Shown here one piece after another: positions 26,368 to 31,699 of a stretch of DNA of 64,000 bases; within the stretch, counting starts at the first letter, position 1; each line of letters starts with the position of its first letter. Source of the DNA: Capillimicrobium parvum (GTDB taxonomy: Bacteria; Actinomycetota; Thermoleophilia; Solirubrobacterales; Solirubrobacteraceae). Location of the stretch: the NCBI RefSeq assembly GCF_021172045.1, contig NZ_CP087164.1, forward strand, positions 4,588,001-4,652,000, read 5' to 3'. Position numbers and translations under genes: made by a program. The notes under the pieces are model-generated. The model was not told the origin of the DNA, made no database searches, and was given only the letters and a program-made list of their open reading frames with translations.

Positions 26368-26754
26368 TCAGTCGCGGGGTTGCGCGACGAACAGCTCGAC
26401 GGGGTTGCCGGACGGGTCGTCGACGACCACCTGGTCGCCACCCATGCCGCGGACGATGTCGCTGCGCAGCGTCGCGCCCGCGTCGCGCAACCGCTGCACC
26501 TCGGCCTCGAGATCGACGACCTCGAGCTGGAAGCGGTTCCAGCCGCCCGGCTCCGGCCGGCGATCGCCGGGAAGCGTCCGTCCCCCGCCACCCTGTCCGC
26601 TCGGCGCGTTCAGCAGCAGCCGCAGGTCGCCGCGCCTGAGCATCGCGAACGGCGGCGCCGGCCGCATGACGACCTCGAAGCCCAGCAGGCCGGTATAGAA
26701 GGCGATCGCCTCGTCGACGTCATCGACGATGTACCGCACGCTCACTGTCGCCAT
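26368..26754 (-). CDS. VOC-family (glyoxalase/bleomycin-resistance fold) protein
   Basis: A 128-residue protein with the paired beta-alpha-beta-beta-beta modules of the VOC superfamily. Visible are RYIVDDVDEAIAFYTGLLGFEV, LRRGDLRLLLNAPSG, NRFQLEVVDLEAEVQRLRDAGA, and the C-terminal VDDPSGNPVELFV with the metal-ligand Glu. It could be a dioxygenase, a lyase or a binding protein. A GGGGAGG site lies just before ATG 26754. It ends 25 nt from the convergent small gene. Confidence 0.82.
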   Translation of the reverse strand: MATVSVRYIVDDVDEAIAFYTGLLGFEVVMRPAPPFAMLRRGDLRLLLNAPSGQGGGGRTLPGDRRPEPGGWNRFQLEVVDLEAEVQRLRDAGATLRSDIVRGMGGDQVVVDDPSGNPVELFVAQPRD

Positions 26755-26858: not shown

Positions 26859-28334
26859 TCAGGCCGCCTCGGCCACCGGACGTCGCACGGACGCGTCGTC
26901 GTCGGTCGCCGCGGTCTCGCCCCGGGTGTTCGCCAGGCGCAGCGCGAGCACCGCGGCCGCGGCGAGCGCGACGGCGCACGCCAGGAGCCCCGACCGGAAC
27001 CCGCCGGTCAGCGCCTCGGCGGGCGAGCCGGCGCCGCCCAGCAGGTGGTCGGTCCGCGAGGTGGCGATCGCCGAGAACACCGCGAGCCCCAGCGCGCCGC
27101 CCACCTGCTGCGACGCGTTGAGCAGCGCGGCCGCCAGGCCGGCCTGGTCGCGCACGACGCCCTCGTTGGCGGCCGTGGTCACGGCGACGAACACGGCGCC
27201 GAGCCCGACCGCGGCGAGCATCAGGCCGGGCAGGATGTCGGCCGTGTAGGAGCCGTCGACCGGCACGCGCGACAGCCAGAACACGCCGCCCGCGGCCAGC
27301 AGCGCTCCGGCCACGGCGACCGGACGCGTCCCCACGCGAACGAGCAGCTGCGACGACACGCCCGCCGCGACCGCCACGCCGAAGCACAGCGGCAGGTACG
27401 CCATCCCCGACTGGATCTGCGACCACCCGAGCACGTTCTGCATGTAGAGGGTGAGGAAGAAGAACATCGCGAGGATCCCCGCGACCGCGATGAGCTGCGT
27501 GACGTCCGCGGCCGCCAGTCCGCGCACGCGGAAGATCGACAGCGGCAGCAGCGGGTTGGCCACGCGAGCCTCGCTCCAGACGAACACGGCCAGCAGCGCC
27601 GCGGCACCCGCGAGGCCGGCGACGGTCCGCGGGTCGCCCCAGCCGACGTCGGGCGCCTTCACCAGCGAGAGGACCAGCAGCAGCATCCCGCCGGTGCTCA
27701 GCAGCGCGCCGCGGAGGTCGAGGCGCCGCCGGTCGGGCCGGCGGGAATCGTCGGCGAACAGCCGGACGGTCGCGATGACGGCCAGCACGCACACGGGCTC
27801 GTTGACGAGCAGGACCCAACGCCACCCGGGCCCCTCGGACAGCACGCCGCCGAGCAGCACGCCGACCGCCGAGGCGAAGCCGGCAACGCCGCCCCACACC
27901 CCGAGCGCCGTGTGCCGGTCGCGGCCCGTGAACGTCGTCGTCAGCAGCGACAGCGCGGCGGGCAGCATCATCGCCGCGCCGAGTCCCTGCGCCATGCGGG
28001 CGCCGACGAGCATGCCCGAGCTCTGCGCCAGGCCGCCGGCCAGCGACGACACGGCGAACAGCGTGGTGCCGGCGATCAGCAACCGCCGCCGCCCGAACAG
28101 GTCCGCCGCGCGGCCGCCGAGCAGCATGAACCCGCCGTACGTGAGCAGGTAGCCGCTGATGACCCACTGCAGATCCTGGACGGAGAAGCCGAGGTCGCGG
28201 CGGATCGACGGCAGCGCGACGTTGACGACCGACGCGTCGACGAAGTCGAGGAACGCGATCGCGCACAGCAGCGCGAGCGCGAGCCTGCCGCGACGGGTCG
28301 AGAGGGGGGTCCGGGTGCTCTGGGCGGTCGTCAT
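26859..28334 (-). CDS. MFS drug-efflux transporter, DHA2 (EmrB/QacA, 14-helix) family
   Basis: A 491-residue membrane protein with about 14 hydrophobic segments. Family motifs are LDFVDASVVNVALPSIRRDLG in helix 1 (motif D1), WVISGYLLTYGGFMLLGGRAADLFGRRR (motif A), and GGVLSEGPGWRWVLLVNEPV (motif C and its end). It should export drugs or toxic metabolites using the proton gradient. ATG 28334 follows GGAGGACC closely. A perfect ECF41-type promoter (TGTCACA, 16 nt, CGTC) lies upstream at 28417-28391, so it is probably the target of the neighbouring sigma factor. Confidence 0.9.
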   Translation of the reverse strand: MTTAQSTRTPLSTRRGRLALALLCAIAFLDFVDASVVNVALPSIRRDLGFSVQDLQWVISGYLLTYGGFMLLGGRAADLFGRRRLLIAGTTLFAVSSLAGGLAQSSGMLVGARMAQGLGAAMMLPAALSLLTTTFTGRDRHTALGVWGGVAGFASAVGVLLGGVLSEGPGWRWVLLVNEPVCVLAVIATVRLFADDSRRPDRRRLDLRGALLSTGGMLLLVLSLVKAPDVGWGDPRTVAGLAGAAALLAVFVWSEARVANPLLPLSIFRVRGLAAADVTQLIAVAGILAMFFFLTLYMQNVLGWSQIQSGMAYLPLCFGVAVAAGVSSQLLVRVGTRPVAVAGALLAAGGVFWLSRVPVDGSYTADILPGLMLAAVGLGAVFVAVTTAANEGVVRDQAGLAAALLNASQQVGGALGLAVFSAIATSRTDHLLGGAGSPAEALTGGFRSGLLACAVALAAAAVLALRLANTRGETAATDDDASVRRPVAEAA

Positions 28335-28355
28335 GGGGTCGGTCCTCCTGCGCTT

Positions 28356-28382
28356 CGTCACATCGCTGCGGTGAGCGTCGTC
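28356..28382 (+). promoter_or_regulatory. ECF41-type promoter for the sigma factor gene (autoregulation)
   Basis: CGTCACA at 28356-28362, 16 nt, then CGTC at 28379-28382. It differs by one base from the ECF41 consensus TGTCACA-N16-CGTC. Transcription would begin near 28389, upstream of ATG 28424 and downstream of the alternative GTG at 28385, which supports the start chosen for the sigma gene. Confidence 0.65.
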
Positions 28383-28390
28383 ATGTGGGT

Positions 28391-28417
28391 GACGACAGCG
28401 GGCGAGAGGATGTGACA
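28391..28417 (-). promoter_or_regulatory. ECF41-type promoter for the MFS transporter
   Basis: On the minus strand TGTCACA (28417-28411) is followed by exactly 16 nt and CGTC (28394-28391), a perfect match to the published ECF41 promoter form. Transcription would start near 28384 and leave a leader of about 50 nt before ATG 28334. Confidence 0.75.
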
Positions 28418-28423
28418 GCAGCG

Positions 28424-29299
28424 ATGGACGACCGGGACGTGGTGACGAGCGAGTTCGAGGCGCAGCGGCCGCGGCTGCGGGCGGTCGCGTACCGGATGCT
28501 CGGCTCCACCAGCGAGGCCGAGGACGCCGTGCAGGAGGCCTGGCTGCGGCTGAGCCGCAGCGACGCCGGCGGCATCGACAACCTCGGCGGCTGGCTGACC
28601 ACGGTCGTCGCGCGCGTCGCCCTCGACATGCTCAAGGCGCGCAACCGCCGCCGCGAGGACTACGTCGGCAGCTGGGTCCCCGAGCCGATCGTCACGACCG
28701 ACGGCGCCGCGCCCGATCTCGAGCGCGAGGCGCTGCTCGCGGACTCCGTCGGCCTCGCCCTGCTCGTCGTCCTCGAGACGCTGTCGCCGAAGGAGCGCCT
28801 GGCGTTCGTGCTGCACGACATGTTCGGCGTGTCGTTCGCCGAGATCGCGCAGATCGTCGAGACGACGCCCGACGCGGCGCGCCAGCTGGCCAGCCGCGCG
28901 CGGCGCCGGGCCCGCGGCGCCCCGGTCGCCGACGCCGACCTCGCCCGCCAGCGCGAGCTCGTCGACGCGTTCCTCAAAGCAGCGCGCGACGGGGACTTCG
29001 AGGCGCTGGTCGCCCTGCTGGACCCCGACGTGGTCTTCCGCCGGGACACCGGGACGCGCCGCGGGATCGCTCCGCTCGTCGGTGCGGAGGCGGTGGCCCG
29101 CCGCGCGGCGCAGGGCGGCCCGCGGTTCGCGCCCCTCGCGCACCCGGCCATCGTCAACGGCGGCGCCGGCATCGTCGTGGCGTCCGGCGGCCGGGTCGTC
29201 GGCGTCGCGGGCATCACCGTCTCCCGCGGCCGGATCGCCGAGATCGACGTCATCACCGACCCCGAGAAGCTGCGCGCCGTCAGCGCGCAGTGGCGCTGA
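28424..29299 (+). CDS. ECF41-family RNA polymerase sigma factor with SnoaL-like C-terminal domain
   Basis: A 291-residue extracytoplasmic-function sigma factor. Region 2 is RAVAYRMLGSTSEAEDAVQEAWLRL, the ECF41 linker motif appears as WVPEP, and region 4 is LSPKERLAFVLHDMFGVSFAEIAQIVETT. A SnoaL-like domain of about 110 residues follows and ends in DPEKL, close to the NPDKL motif of ECF41 proteins. In this group the fused C-terminal domain replaces an anti-sigma factor and tunes activity. ECF41 promoters are readable upstream of this gene and of the divergent transporter. Confidence 0.88.
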   Translation: MDDRDVVTSEFEAQRPRLRAVAYRMLGSTSEAEDAVQEAWLRLSRSDAGGIDNLGGWLTTVVARVALDMLKARNRRREDYVGSWVPEPIVTTDGAAPDLEREALLADSVGLALLVVLETLSPKERLAFVLHDMFGVSFAEIAQIVETTPDAARQLASRARRRARGAPVADADLARQRELVDAFLKAARDGDFEALVALLDPDVVFRRDTGTRRGIAPLVGAEAVARRAAQGGPRFAPLAHPAIVNGGAGIVVASGGRVVGVAGITVSRGRIAEIDVITDPEKLRAVSAQWR

Positions 29300-29306
29300 G
29301 CCGCGC

Positions 29307-30134
29307 TCAGCGGCCGCGGCCGAAGCCGGGCCCGCCGACGCGCCGGCCCGTGAAGCGGATCGGCGCCCGCCGGCACCGGAGGTCGCGCAGGCGCAGGGTC
29401 CCGGTGACGCGCCGGCGATGGTCCGTGAGCCGGGCGTCGAGCCGGTGCGCGGGCGTGTCCGCGTTCGCGTGGGCGCGGCGCGAGGAGATCCGGCCCTTGC
29501 GCGTCACGTGCTCGCGGCCGAGCCGCAGAAACGCCGGGCCCGGCCAGCACGCCGCGTCGAACGGCACGCCCGAGCCGGTGAGCACCAGGCGGCCGGGGGT
29601 GATCCACAGGTCGAACGTCTCGCGCTGGCTCGTCGTGCCGTGGTAGTGGCGGACCGGGAACGCCGGATACGGAAGCCTCGTCGGGTACACGTCGGAGGCG
29701 AACTCGAACGCGGCGGGGGTCAGCGGCTCGAAGAACCGCCCCGCCGGGTGCTTCCGGACCTGGGCCTCCGCGGTCGGCGGTGCGTCGGGCCGGCACGGGT
29801 AGACGTCGTAGTACAGGTAGCCCCTGAGGTCGACCCGCGAGGCGACGACGAAGCTGCAGTCCCCCTCCTCGGCCACCACGCAGTCGGCGCGGCGGCTCGT
29901 GACCTGGGCGCAGTCCGCGACGGTCGCCTGGCAGGCGCCGCAGTCGTTGGCGAACGCCGTGCTCACGGTCCGGGCCGTACCGGCATCGATCGACGTGGGC
30001 GTCGTCGCGTGCGCCGCGGGCGCGGTTCCGGTCCGGGCCGTCCCGGCGTCGATCGGCGTGGGCGTCGTCGCGTGCGCCGCGGGCGCGCTCGCGAGCCCGG
30101 CCACGACCAGCACCAACACGGTCACGCTCCTCAT
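29307..30134 (-). CDS. Secreted protein of unknown function with duplicated signal-cleavage region
   Basis: A 275-residue exported product. The signal peptide (VTVLVLVVAGLASAPAAHA) is followed by two copies of a 21-residue segment (APAAHATTP...IDAGTART), each carrying an AHA cleavage-like site. The next part has several cysteines (NDCGACQATVADCAQ, RADCVVAEEGDCSF) that probably form disulfides. The C-terminus is very basic. I do not recognise a domain. It ends 7 nt from the convergent sigma-factor gene. Confidence 0.65.
   Translation of the reverse strand: MRSVTVLVLVVAGLASAPAAHATTPTPIDAGTARTGTAPAAHATTPTSIDAGTARTVSTAFANDCGACQATVADCAQVTSRRADCVVAEEGDCSFVVASRVDLRGYLYYDVYPCRPDAPPTAEAQVRKHPAGRFFEPLTPAAFEFASDVYPTRLPYPAFPVRHYHGTTSQRETFDLWITPGRLVLTGSGVPFDAACWPGPAFLRLGREHVTRKGRISSRRAHANADTPAHRLDARLTDHRRRVTGTLRLRDLRCRRAPIRFTGRRVGGPGFGRGR
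29967..30092 (-). repeat. 63-bp tandem duplication inside the secreted-protein gene
   Basis: Copies at 29967-30029 and 30030-30092 differ at only about three positions over their first 57 bases. The length keeps the frame and duplicates 21 residues around the signal-peptide cleavage site of the gene at 29307-30134. Confidence 0.9.
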
Positions 30135-30171: not shown

Positions 30172-31080
30172 TCACAACCCGGCCATGCGCTGCACGATCC
30201 CGACCGCGGCGAACGAGCCCGAGGCGATCGCGCTCGCCACCGACGGGGGCGGCGGGGTCACGTCGCCGGCCGCGGACACGCCCGGCACGCTCGTGCGCAG
30301 CCACGTGTCGACCTCGACCAGCTGCCCGAGGTGGCCGGCGATCGTCCTGACGCCGAGCTGCTCGGCCAGCCGCGAGCGCTGGTGCAGCGTCACGGCCACG
30401 AGCAGGCCGTCGCAGGCGCGCTCGTCGCCGTCGGCGAACGCGATGGCCGTGAGCGCGTCGCCCGGTCCGCGCAGACCGGCGACGGGGCGCTCGTCGATGC
30501 CCACCCCCGCCGCCGCGAGCCGGTCGGCGCCGTCGGCGTCGAGGTCCACCGGACCGTTCGCGTACACCGTCACGTCGTCGCTCCACATCCGCAGCAGCAG
30601 CGCCCGGTGGACCGCCGTCTCCCCGCGGTCCAGCACGCCGAGCGCCCCGTCGCGCACCTCCCAGCCATGGCAGAACGGGCAGTGGAAGACCGAGCGCCCC
30701 CAGCGCTCCTCGATGCCGGCCACGTCCGCGAAGCGGTAGTCCATCCCGGTGGCGAGCAGGACGTGCCGAGCCGTCTCGCGGGCACCGCCGGCGAGCTCGA
30801 GCGCGAAGCCGTCCGCCCCGTCCGGCGCCGCGCGCACGACCTCGCCCGCGCGCACCTCGACGCTCGGATACGCGGCGAGCTCGGCCCGTCCGCCGGCGTA
30901 GAGGTCGGCGGGCGGGCGGCCGTCGTGGCCGATCAGCCCGCCGATCCCGTGGGCGGGGCGGTTGCTCTGGCCTCCCGCGTCGACGACGAGCGTGGCGCGC
31001 CGGGCGCGGCCGAGCACGAGCGCGGCGCTGAGCCCGGCGGCGCCGGCGCCCACGACGATGCAGTCCCAGGTCTTGGTCAT
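30172..31080 (-). CDS. Thioredoxin-reductase-like FAD/NAD(P)-dependent oxidoreductase
   Basis: A 302-residue flavoprotein. The FAD motif is CIVVGAGAAGLSAALVLGRA at the N-terminus, and a redox-type CxxC occurs as HCPFCHGWEV, where thioredoxin reductase has CATC. The C-terminal FAD motif is PGVSAAGDVTPPP. It has the two-domain layout of TrxR, but the NAD(P) motif (GVLDRGETAVHRALLL) lacks the normal GxGxxA, so the electron donor may differ. Such proteins often reduce a small thiol or act on a metabolite. It is divergent from an XRE-cupin regulator 46 nt away. Confidence 0.82.
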   Translation of the reverse strand: MTKTWDCIVVGAGAAGLSAALVLGRARRATLVVDAGGQSNRPAHGIGGLIGHDGRPPADLYAGGRAELAAYPSVEVRAGEVVRAAPDGADGFALELAGGARETARHVLLATGMDYRFADVAGIEERWGRSVFHCPFCHGWEVRDGALGVLDRGETAVHRALLLRMWSDDVTVYANGPVDLDADGADRLAAAGVGIDERPVAGLRGPGDALTAIAFADGDERACDGLLVAVTLHQRSRLAEQLGVRTIAGHLGQLVEVDTWLRTSVPGVSAAGDVTPPPPSVASAIASGSFAAVGIVQRMAGL

Positions 31081-31126
31081 CGTCTCAGCGTGACGGCGTC
31101 GCTCGGATATGCCAAGCTGCTTTGCC

Positions 31127-31699
31127 ATGTCGGCAAACACGGAGCCGTTCGACGTCCGGGTCCGCCGGCGCCTGCGCGAGCTGCGCAGCGAGCGCGGGCT
31201 GACGCTGCAGCAGGTCGCCGACCGCGCGAACATCGACGTCTCGACGCTGAGCCGTCTCGAATCGGGCAAGCGGCGTCTGGCCCTCGACCACGTCCCGCTG
31301 CTCGCAGACGCCCTCGGCGTGACGGCGGACGAGCTGCTCGGCGCCCGGCCAGCCCAGGACCCGCGCGTGCGTTCGGAGCCGGAGCACCTCGACGGCCTGA
31401 CGATGTGGCCGCTGACGCACCGCGGCGCGGCCCGCGGCCTGCAGGCCTTCAAGATCCGCATAGCCGCCACGCGCACGACGCCGCCGGACCCGCTCCCGGT
31501 CCACGAGGGCCATGACTGGCTCTACGTCCTGCACGGCCGGATGCGCCTGATCCTCGGCGCCGACGACTTCACGATCGAACCCGGCGAGGCGGTCGAGTTC
31601 ACCACCTGGACGCCGCACTGGTTCGGCGCCGTCGACGGGGCCGTCGAGCTCATCGCCATCCTCGGGCCGCAGGGCGAGCGGCTGCACCTGCACGGCTGA
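31127..31699 (+). CDS. XRE-family regulator with C-terminal cupin domain
   Basis: A 190-residue regulator. The N-terminal helix-turn-helix (residues about 8-65) reads LRSERGLTLQQVADRANIDVSTLSRLESGKRRLALDHV. The C-terminal cupin holds PVHEGHDWLYVLHGRMRL and EPGEAVEFTTWTPHW. This pairing is usual for regulators that sense a small ligand and control one neighbouring enzyme. It is divergent from the thioredoxin-reductase-like gene. I took ATG 31127; an upstream in-frame ATG at 31109 is less likely. Confidence 0.85.
   Translation: MSANTEPFDVRVRRRLRELRSERGLTLQQVADRANIDVSTLSRLESGKRRLALDHVPLLADALGVTADELLGARPAQDPRVRSEPEHLDGLTMWPLTHRGAARGLQAFKIRIAATRTTPPDPLPVHEGHDWLYVLHGRMRLILGADDFTIEPGEAVEFTTWTPHWFGAVDGAVELIAILGPQGERLHLHG

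What the first reader, a model, noticed from the sequence alone, without database searches (positions are those of the whole stretch)
28335..28423. Two opposed ECF41 promoters between a sigma factor and an MFS exporter
The minus strand has a perfect TGTCACA-N16-CGTC for the exporter and the plus strand has CGTCACA-N16-CGTC for the sigma gene. Predicted start points are within about 5 nt, so the promoters face and overlap each other. GTCGTCA (28377-28383) and TGACGAC (28390-28396) form an inverted repeat that carries both -10 elements. ECF41 sigmas usually sit beside small oxidoreductase or carboxymuconolactone-decarboxylase genes, so a drug-type exporter as target is uncommon.
Basis: partly seen in the sequence, partly recalled or inferred. 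Interest (0 to 1): 0.7.

Follow-up and report, generated by a model that had tools for sequence, protein, structure and literature searches.

The report
Symmetric two-way promoter for sigma-factor/exporter pair
A gene switch (sigma factor) and a drug-type export pump are apparently both switched on from one mirror-image promoter that RNA polymerase can use in either direction, and the same mirror-image design with exactly the same spacing recurs next to relatives of this sigma factor in at least five bacterial phyla.

Summary
The 89-bp gap (28335-28423) between an MFS exporter (-) and an ECF sigma gene with a SnoaL_2 tail (+) holds two opposed promoters, CGTCACA-N16-CGTC (+) and TGTCACA-N16-CGTC (-), with 8 bp between their -10 elements. 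It is not chance: 13 GTCACA-N16-CGTC sites occur in 5.95 Mb, and a facing pair at this gap is expected ~7e-6 times.

New here: in a genome-collection scan allowing gaps of 0-30 bp, 73 of 80 facing pairs have exactly 8 bp, in five phyla, nearly all beside a relative of this sigma. A mapped ECF41 start site and leaderless targets put +1 at the ninth base after CGTC, so each promoter's +1 G pairs with the last C of the other's -10. The best model is one shared-bubble, symmetric, autoregulatory bidirectional promoter with mutually exclusive polymerase orientations. It extends sigma70 bidirectional promoters to an alternative sigma.

Corrections: starts are ~9 nt apart. The sigma lies in a clade beside, not inside, classical ECF41. 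Exporter targets (MFS, DrrA-like ABC) are common in this order. Start sites, sigma dependence and transported substrate remain untested for this locus.

The parts
28356..28362 (+). -35 element (CGTCACA) of the sigma-gene promoter
   Evidence: Sequence; same CGTCACA in orthologous loci L093, L036, L037, L218
28379..28382 (+). -10 element (CGTC) of the sigma-gene promoter; extended CGTCA
   Evidence: Sequence; CGTCA in 90% of 72 gap-8 elements
28391..28391 (+). Predicted transcription start (G) of the sigma mRNA, ninth nt after CGTC
   Evidence: Inferred from mapped S. meliloti RpoE9/ECF41 start (PMC6180224) and leaderless ATG position in 27/135 sites
28411..28417 (-). -35 element (TGTCACA, perfect) of the exporter promoter
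28391..28394 (-). -10 element (CGTC) of the exporter promoter
28382..28382 (-). Predicted transcription start (G) of the exporter mRNA
   Evidence: Same inference as for 28391
28383..28390 (.). 8-bp gap (ATGTGGGT) shared by both promoters as -10 to +1 segment; gap exactly 8 in 73/80 loci
28377..28396 (.). Inverted repeat GTCGTCA-N6-TGACGAC, centre of the dyad
28404..28409 (+). Purine tract GAGAGG, probable weak/long-spaced ribosome site of the sigma gene, inside the spacer of the exporter promoter
   Evidence: Sequence; purine tract at the same place in 72 gap-8 elements
28344..28349 (-). AGGAGG ribosome site of the exporter, 9 nt before its ATG
   Evidence: Sequence
28424..29299 (+). ECF sigma factor, SigJ-type, with C-terminal SnoaL_2 domain
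   Evidence: NF007214 284.8 bits (cut-off 271), Sigma70_r2, Sigma70_r4_2, SnoaL_2; PDB 5xe7 SigJ E=5e-49
26859..28334 (-). MFS exporter, DHA2/EmrB type
   Evidence: MFS_1 6.5e-54; TIGR00711 242.6 bits over cut-off 230.2
26368..26754 (-). VOC/glyoxalase-type protein downstream of the exporter, possibly in the same transcript
   Evidence: PF00903; synteny in L093 and 55% identity to the gene directly served by a gap-8 promoter in Blastococcus L097; co-transcription is inference

Best explanation
The gap is one symmetric bidirectional promoter for an autoregulated SnoaL_2-type ECF sigma factor. Holoenzyme carrying this sigma binds in one of two mirror-image orientations. In one it makes the sigma mRNA (positive feedback), in the other the exporter mRNA (probably with the VOC gene). 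The 8-bp gap equals the -10 to +1 distance, so both orientations melt essentially the same stretch (about 28380-28393), and each promoter's initiating G pairs with the last C of the other's -10. The two orientations therefore exclude each other and are fixed in register. In this locus the exporter side should be favoured: it has a perfect -35 (TGTCACA versus CGTCACA) and a well-placed AGGAGG. The sigma is presumably held inactive by its SnoaL_2 tail until a ligand or condition releases it, and the pump then exports that compound or a related one. Shown here: sequence, conservation, fixed spacing, association with this sigma clade. Inferred: start sites at this locus, sigma dependence, mutual exclusion, ligand, pump substrate.
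For: (a) Both promoters match the experimentally defined ECF41 motif (PMC3426412), and the same genome carries it before classical ECF41 targets (epimerase genes, L029 and L030). (b) Orthologous sigma-MFS loci (L093, L036, L037, L218, L050) keep both promoters and the 8-bp gap while spacers differ. (c) Genome-collection scan with gaps 0-30 allowed: 73/80 have gap 8, with 60 different 8-mers among the 73, and 78/81 lie beside a homologous sigma. (d) 93 homologous sigma loci chosen by protein only: of 18 with both promoters, 14 face at gap 8, 1 at gap 9, and 3 have only back-to-back pairs at variable distance. (e) +1 at the ninth base after CGTC: S. meliloti RpoE9 start (PMC6180224), and ATG exactly there in 27/135 other sites (p=3e-17). 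(f) Mutual exclusion at facing promoters is established for sigma70 (PMC12825309). (g) Autoinhibition by the SnoaL-like tail is reported for ECF41 (PMC8999054).
Against: No transcription start or sigma dependence was measured for this locus. The gap is not universal: a Rubrobacteraceae-like family uses 11 bp, and 9, 10, 21 and 23 occur. One sigma-MFS locus (L196) is back-to-back instead. All facing-pair sigmas fall on one side of the tree, so part of the constancy may be shared ancestry. Paralogous sigmas in the genome could also use these promoters. The tail's ligand and the pump's substrate are unknown.
Confidence: 0.75

Rival explanations
1. Two independent ECF41-type promoters that happen to be packed into a short gap; the spacing has no role of its own and is kept only by descent from one ancestral locus.
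For: All facing-pair sigmas fall on one side of the tree, so a single origin is not excluded. Other gaps (9, 11) and back-to-back pairs occur and presumably work.
Against: The gap bases are near saturation (60 different 8-mers in 73) and partner genes have been swapped many times, yet indels in the gap are rare (73/80), while the distance to the target gene's start varies widely. The gap equals the independently derived -10 to +1 distance.
Confidence: 0.2
2. The palindrome CGTCA-N6-TGACG is the operator of a separate dimeric regulator, and the promoter resemblance is secondary.
For: A 16-bp dyad with 5-bp arms is the usual form of a dimer's operator.
Against: The dyad is flanked on both sides by TGTCACA-type -35 elements at exactly N16; the only gene found consistently beside it is the sigma (78/81); the arms are the known -10 of this sigma type; leaderless one-way promoters of the same motif type mostly lack the A after CGTC (9/25 have it).
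Confidence: 0.04
3. Only one side is a working sigma-dependent promoter; the other gene is driven by housekeeping sigma or is not autoregulated.
For: In divergent ECF41 loci the motif was found before 36 (sigma side) and 41 (target side) of 55 (PMC3426412), so it is not always on both sides. The sigma-side -35 here is CGTCACA, one base from consensus.
Against: The first base of the -35 is variable on both sides across 72 gap-8 elements. The sigma-side elements are kept in L093, L036, L037 and L218.
Confidence: 0.15

Closest known systems
ECF41 sigma factors with divergent COE genes (Wecke et al. 2012, PMC3426412)
   Same: Sigma with SnoaL-type tail and no anti-sigma gene; TGTCACA-n16-CGTC promoter; divergent genes often both carrying the motif; the neighbouring gene as target
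   Different: Neither the facing geometry nor the 8-bp gap is mentioned in the text; targets there are decarboxylases, oxidoreductases and epimerases, not exporters; the facing-pair sigmas fall outside the classical SigJ/WLPEP/NPDKL clade
Bidirectional sigma70 promoters (Warman et al., NAR 2026, PMC12825309, and the 2021 work cited there)
   Same: Pseudo-symmetric DNA binds polymerase in either orientation, one excluding the other; divergent starts at preferred distances (18, 10, 23 bp)
   Different: There the symmetry is in a shared sigma70 -10; here complete -35 and -10 elements of an alternative sigma are mirrored at a fixed gap, and one product is the sigma itself
HrpL/hrpJ region of Pseudomonas syringae (PMC5263251)
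   Same: An ECF sigma gene divergent from its target, with holoenzyme at one promoter affecting the other
   Different: hrpL itself is sigma54-dependent and the effect is negative autoregulation; no mirrored promoter pair
M. tuberculosis SigJ (PDB 5xe7)
   Same: Same domain order, best solved relative (E=5e-49)
   Different: Falls in the classical clade with WLPEP and NPDKF motifs

Membership tests
ECF41 (broad, SigJ-type) | Sigma regions 2 and 4 plus C-terminal SnoaL-type extension | tested here: met
   Pfam and NCBIfam NF007214 over cut-off
ECF41 (broad, SigJ-type) | WLPEP motif (YVGPWLPEP) in the sigma2-sigma4 linker | tested here: inconclusive
   Here YVGSWVPEP, one letter off WLPEP; most other facing-pair sigmas diverge further
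ECF41 (broad, SigJ-type) | NPDKL motif in the C-terminal extension | tested here: not met
   Here DPEKL; other facing-pair sigmas mostly ADPxxL
ECF41 (broad, SigJ-type) | Falls in the clade of classical members (SigJ and the WLPEP/NPDKL sigmas) | tested here: not met
   Classical members form one clade (SH-aLRT 99); all 73 facing-pair sigmas lie outside it (quick tree)
ECF41 (broad, SigJ-type) | Promoter TGTCACA-N16-CGTC at neighbouring gene and own gene | tested here: met
ECF41 (broad, SigJ-type) | COE-type neighbour (decarboxylase, oxidoreductase, epimerase) | tested here: not met
   Neighbour is a DHA2-type MFS exporter
Current ECF group number (2021 classification) | Group HMM score | not testable with these tools
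   The classification paper and its models are not held
Bidirectional promoter (Warman sense) | Promoter elements on opposite strands so close that polymerase orientations exclude each other | tested here: met
   Sequence geometry: predicted footprints overlap over most of their length; exclusion itself not measured
Bidirectional promoter (Warman sense) | Divergent RNAs observed from both sides | not testable with these tools
   No transcript data for this organism
DHA2/EmrB MFS exporters | TIGR00711 score over cut-off | tested here: met
   242.6 bits vs 230.2

The most novel reading that the evidence does not exclude
A whole clade of SnoaL_2-tailed sigma factors, beside classical ECF41, is built around a single symmetric shared-bubble promoter with a fixed 8-bp gap. 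It serves as an orientation-choice element that sets the ratio of sigma to target by mutual exclusion, and in this order of bacteria the clade has become a regulator of drug-type exporters.
Probability: 0.5. Interest if true: 0.75.

Novelty: new variant of a known kind. Interest (0 to 1): 0.6.

Why it matters
If right, it is a minimal, naturally repeated case of a bidirectional promoter outside sigma70. Two near-identical core promoters are locked in one register, and one product is the sigma that uses them. That makes the question of how polymerase chooses between mirror-image promoters directly testable with one sigma, core enzyme and a 60-bp DNA. It also points to exporters (MFS, DrrA-like ABC) as targets of SnoaL_2-type sigmas, a possible route to what their tails sense, and it gives a precise 60-bp signature for finding such loci.

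Tried and rejected
An RNA element at the site: no Rfam match, and the leaders fold no better than shuffles. A wider regulon: the other genome sites I read lie mostly inside predicted genes, so they are probably chance; I did not follow the few near gene starts. Automatic choice of the longest ORF as neighbour misled and was replaced by clustering. A first motif count on the sigma set gave unexpectedly few WLPEP matches; alignment showed this is real divergence, not a bug. Papers on SigJ structure, the 2021 classification and the 2021 bidirectional-promoter study are not held. A careful tree did not finish in time; the quick tree is used.

Full report
What is there. The 89-bp interval 28335-28423 separates an MFS exporter gene (-, ATG at 28334) from an ECF sigma gene (+, ATG at 28424). 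The plus strand has CGTCACA 28356-28362, N16, CGTC 28379-28382. The minus strand has TGTCACA 28417-28411, N16, CGTC 28394-28391. The two are related by a dyad at 28386.5 and their -10 elements are 8 bp apart. The exporter is a DHA2/EmrB-type pump (TIGR00711 over cut-off) and the sigma is SigJ-type with a C-terminal SnoaL_2 domain; M. tuberculosis SigJ, PDB 5xe7, is its best solved relative.

More than chance. The 5.95-Mb genome has 5 perfect TGTCACA-N15..17-CGTC sites and 13 GTCACA-N16-CGTC sites. Three of the five perfect ones are at homologous sigma loci: this one, an epimerase-sigma operon (L029) and a divergent sigma/epimerase pair (L030). From 13 sites, a facing pair at exactly gap 8 is expected about 7e-6 times per genome. 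In 396 genomes of the phylum the facing pattern was found in 9 and its reversed control in none.

The fixed geometry. I scanned the genome collection for facing pairs with any gap from 0 to 30. The gap is exactly 8 bp in 73 of 80. Of 81 loci (these plus the window), 78 carry a homologous sigma on one side. The 73 gaps contain 60 different 8-mers, and the base-by-base profile shows low information inside the gap except for an A after CGTC on both sides, i.e. CGTCA-N6-TGACG. The hosts include Actinomycetota, Pseudomonadota, Acidobacteriota, Chloroflexota and Myxococcota. As a sample chosen without regard to promoters, I took 93 homologous sigma loci, 90 from a protein search of the same order and 3 paralogs from this genome. 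Eighteen have both promoters within 400 bp: 14 face at gap 8, one at gap 9, and three have only a back-to-back pair, at 3, 12 and 102 bp. Back-to-back pairs in the phylum sample have scattered gaps (10, 12, 13, 18, 26). The rule is not absolute: in the phylum sample facing gaps were 8 (3), 9 (2) and 11 (4, all one family).

Why 8. In S. meliloti, the ECF41 sigma RpoE9 has a mapped start for its target. The printed promoter CCATGTCACA...CTCGTCATGGTGTCG ends in G, the ninth base after CGTC; other rows of that table, where the start is in lower case, show that the last printed letter is the start (PMC6180224). Independently, among 135 TGTCACA-N16-CGTC sites of this order without a facing -10, ATG begins exactly at the ninth base in 27 (next best 8; p=3e-17), as expected for leaderless mRNAs starting at that base. 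One of them is the L030 epimerase in this genome. At gap 8 the ninth base is the G that pairs with the last C of the opposite -10. The predicted starts here are therefore 28391 (+) and 28382 (-), giving leaders of 33 and 48 nt, and both orientations would melt the same stretch. This explanation of the number 8 is inference from position, not a measurement.

Conservation at this locus. L093 (a short MAG contig labelled Alphaproteobacteria but syntenic, exporter 86% and sigma 82% identical), L036, L037, L218 and L050 keep both promoters and the gap while spacers and flanks differ. In many gap-8 loci the purine tract used as the sigma's ribosome site lies inside the spacer of the opposite promoter, next to its -35. 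Here it is GAGAGG, 14 nt from the ATG, whereas the exporter has AGGAGG at 9 nt. With the better -35 this suggests the exporter is the stronger output (inference).

Which sigmas. Classical ECF41 members carry YVGPWLPEP and NPDKL (PMC3426412, PMC7730460). The three paralogs in this genome fit that; this sigma has YVGSWVPEP and DPEKL, and most facing-pair sigmas have forms such as PLxxHVPEP and ADPxxL. In a quick tree the classical ones including SigJ form one clade (SH-aLRT 99) and all 73 facing-pair sigmas lie outside it. Promoter letters differ too: after TGTCACA, G is common in the leaderless one-way set (13/25) but rare in gap-8 elements (2/144), and A follows CGTC in 129/144 gap-8 half-elements versus 9/25. 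The leaderless set was gathered from the order without checking that each site lies beside a classical sigma.

Which targets. In the wide sample the partner is mostly a carboxymuconolactone-decarboxylase protein (47 loci), with glyoxalase-type, pyridoxamine-oxidase-type, NmrA-type, DUF1059, MFS, DrrA-like ABC and MMPL genes in others. In this order the facing pairs sit mainly beside MFS genes and DrrA-like ABC ATPases (L041, L045, L198, L202). MFS-sigma operons with the promoter before the MFS gene also occur (L249, L250, L253, L254). The MFS link was gained or lost several times. I found no held paper linking ECF41 to efflux pumps or describing this promoter geometry. A downstream VOC gene (26368-26754) is 55% identical to the gene directly served by a gap-8 promoter in Blastococcus, so it may be part of the exporter transcript.

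How it most likely works. Holoenzyme with this sigma chooses one of two mirror-image orientations on one element. One makes more sigma, the other makes the pump. Mutual exclusion is known for sigma70 bidirectional promoters (PMC12825309). The SnoaL_2 tail presumably keeps the sigma inactive until a signal arrives, as reported for ECF41 (PMC8999054). Start sites, sigma dependence, competition, signal and substrate are all untested for this locus.

Verdict. The wider result is a symmetric, fixed-register bidirectional promoter characteristic of a sigma clade beside classical ECF41: a new variant of a known kind.

Noticed in passing
L093 (JADZBA010000078.1): Contig labelled Alphaproteobacteria MAG is syntenic with this locus (exporter 86%, sigma 82% identical), so it is probably misbinned.
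   Followed up: partly
TGTCACA-N16-CGTC sites of the order (one search list), e.g. L030:3163-3202: Many ECF41-type targets appear leaderless, with ATG starting exactly at the ninth base after CGTC and C at -1.
   Followed up: yes
L130; G584, G591, G598, G605: A Rubrobacteraceae-like family uses an 11-bp gap with a near-constant gap sequence (ATTGTAGTAGT).
   Followed up: partly
L196 / L270: A sigma-MFS locus (MFS 69% identical) uses back-to-back promoters 3 bp apart, and its sigma appears leaderless.
   Followed up: partly
L039, L041, L045, L048, L198, L202; L088, L121: DrrA-like ABC ATPase genes are divergent partners of related sigmas, six of these eight loci in this order.
   Followed up: partly
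L110:680-739: An MMPL-family transporter gene is the partner of a gap-8 promoter in Streptomyces atriruber.
   Followed up: no
L142:6028-6087: In Ktedonobacter robiniae the two N16 spacers are themselves mirror images, so the whole 60-bp element is almost a perfect palindrome.
   Followed up: no
window 29965-30090 (-): Direct repeat of roughly 60 bp inside the small secreted-type protein gene 29307-30134.
   Followed up: no
window 30172-31179 (-) and 31109-31696 (+): Thioredoxin-reductase-like flavoprotein gene divergent from an XRE-cupin regulator gene.
   Followed up: no
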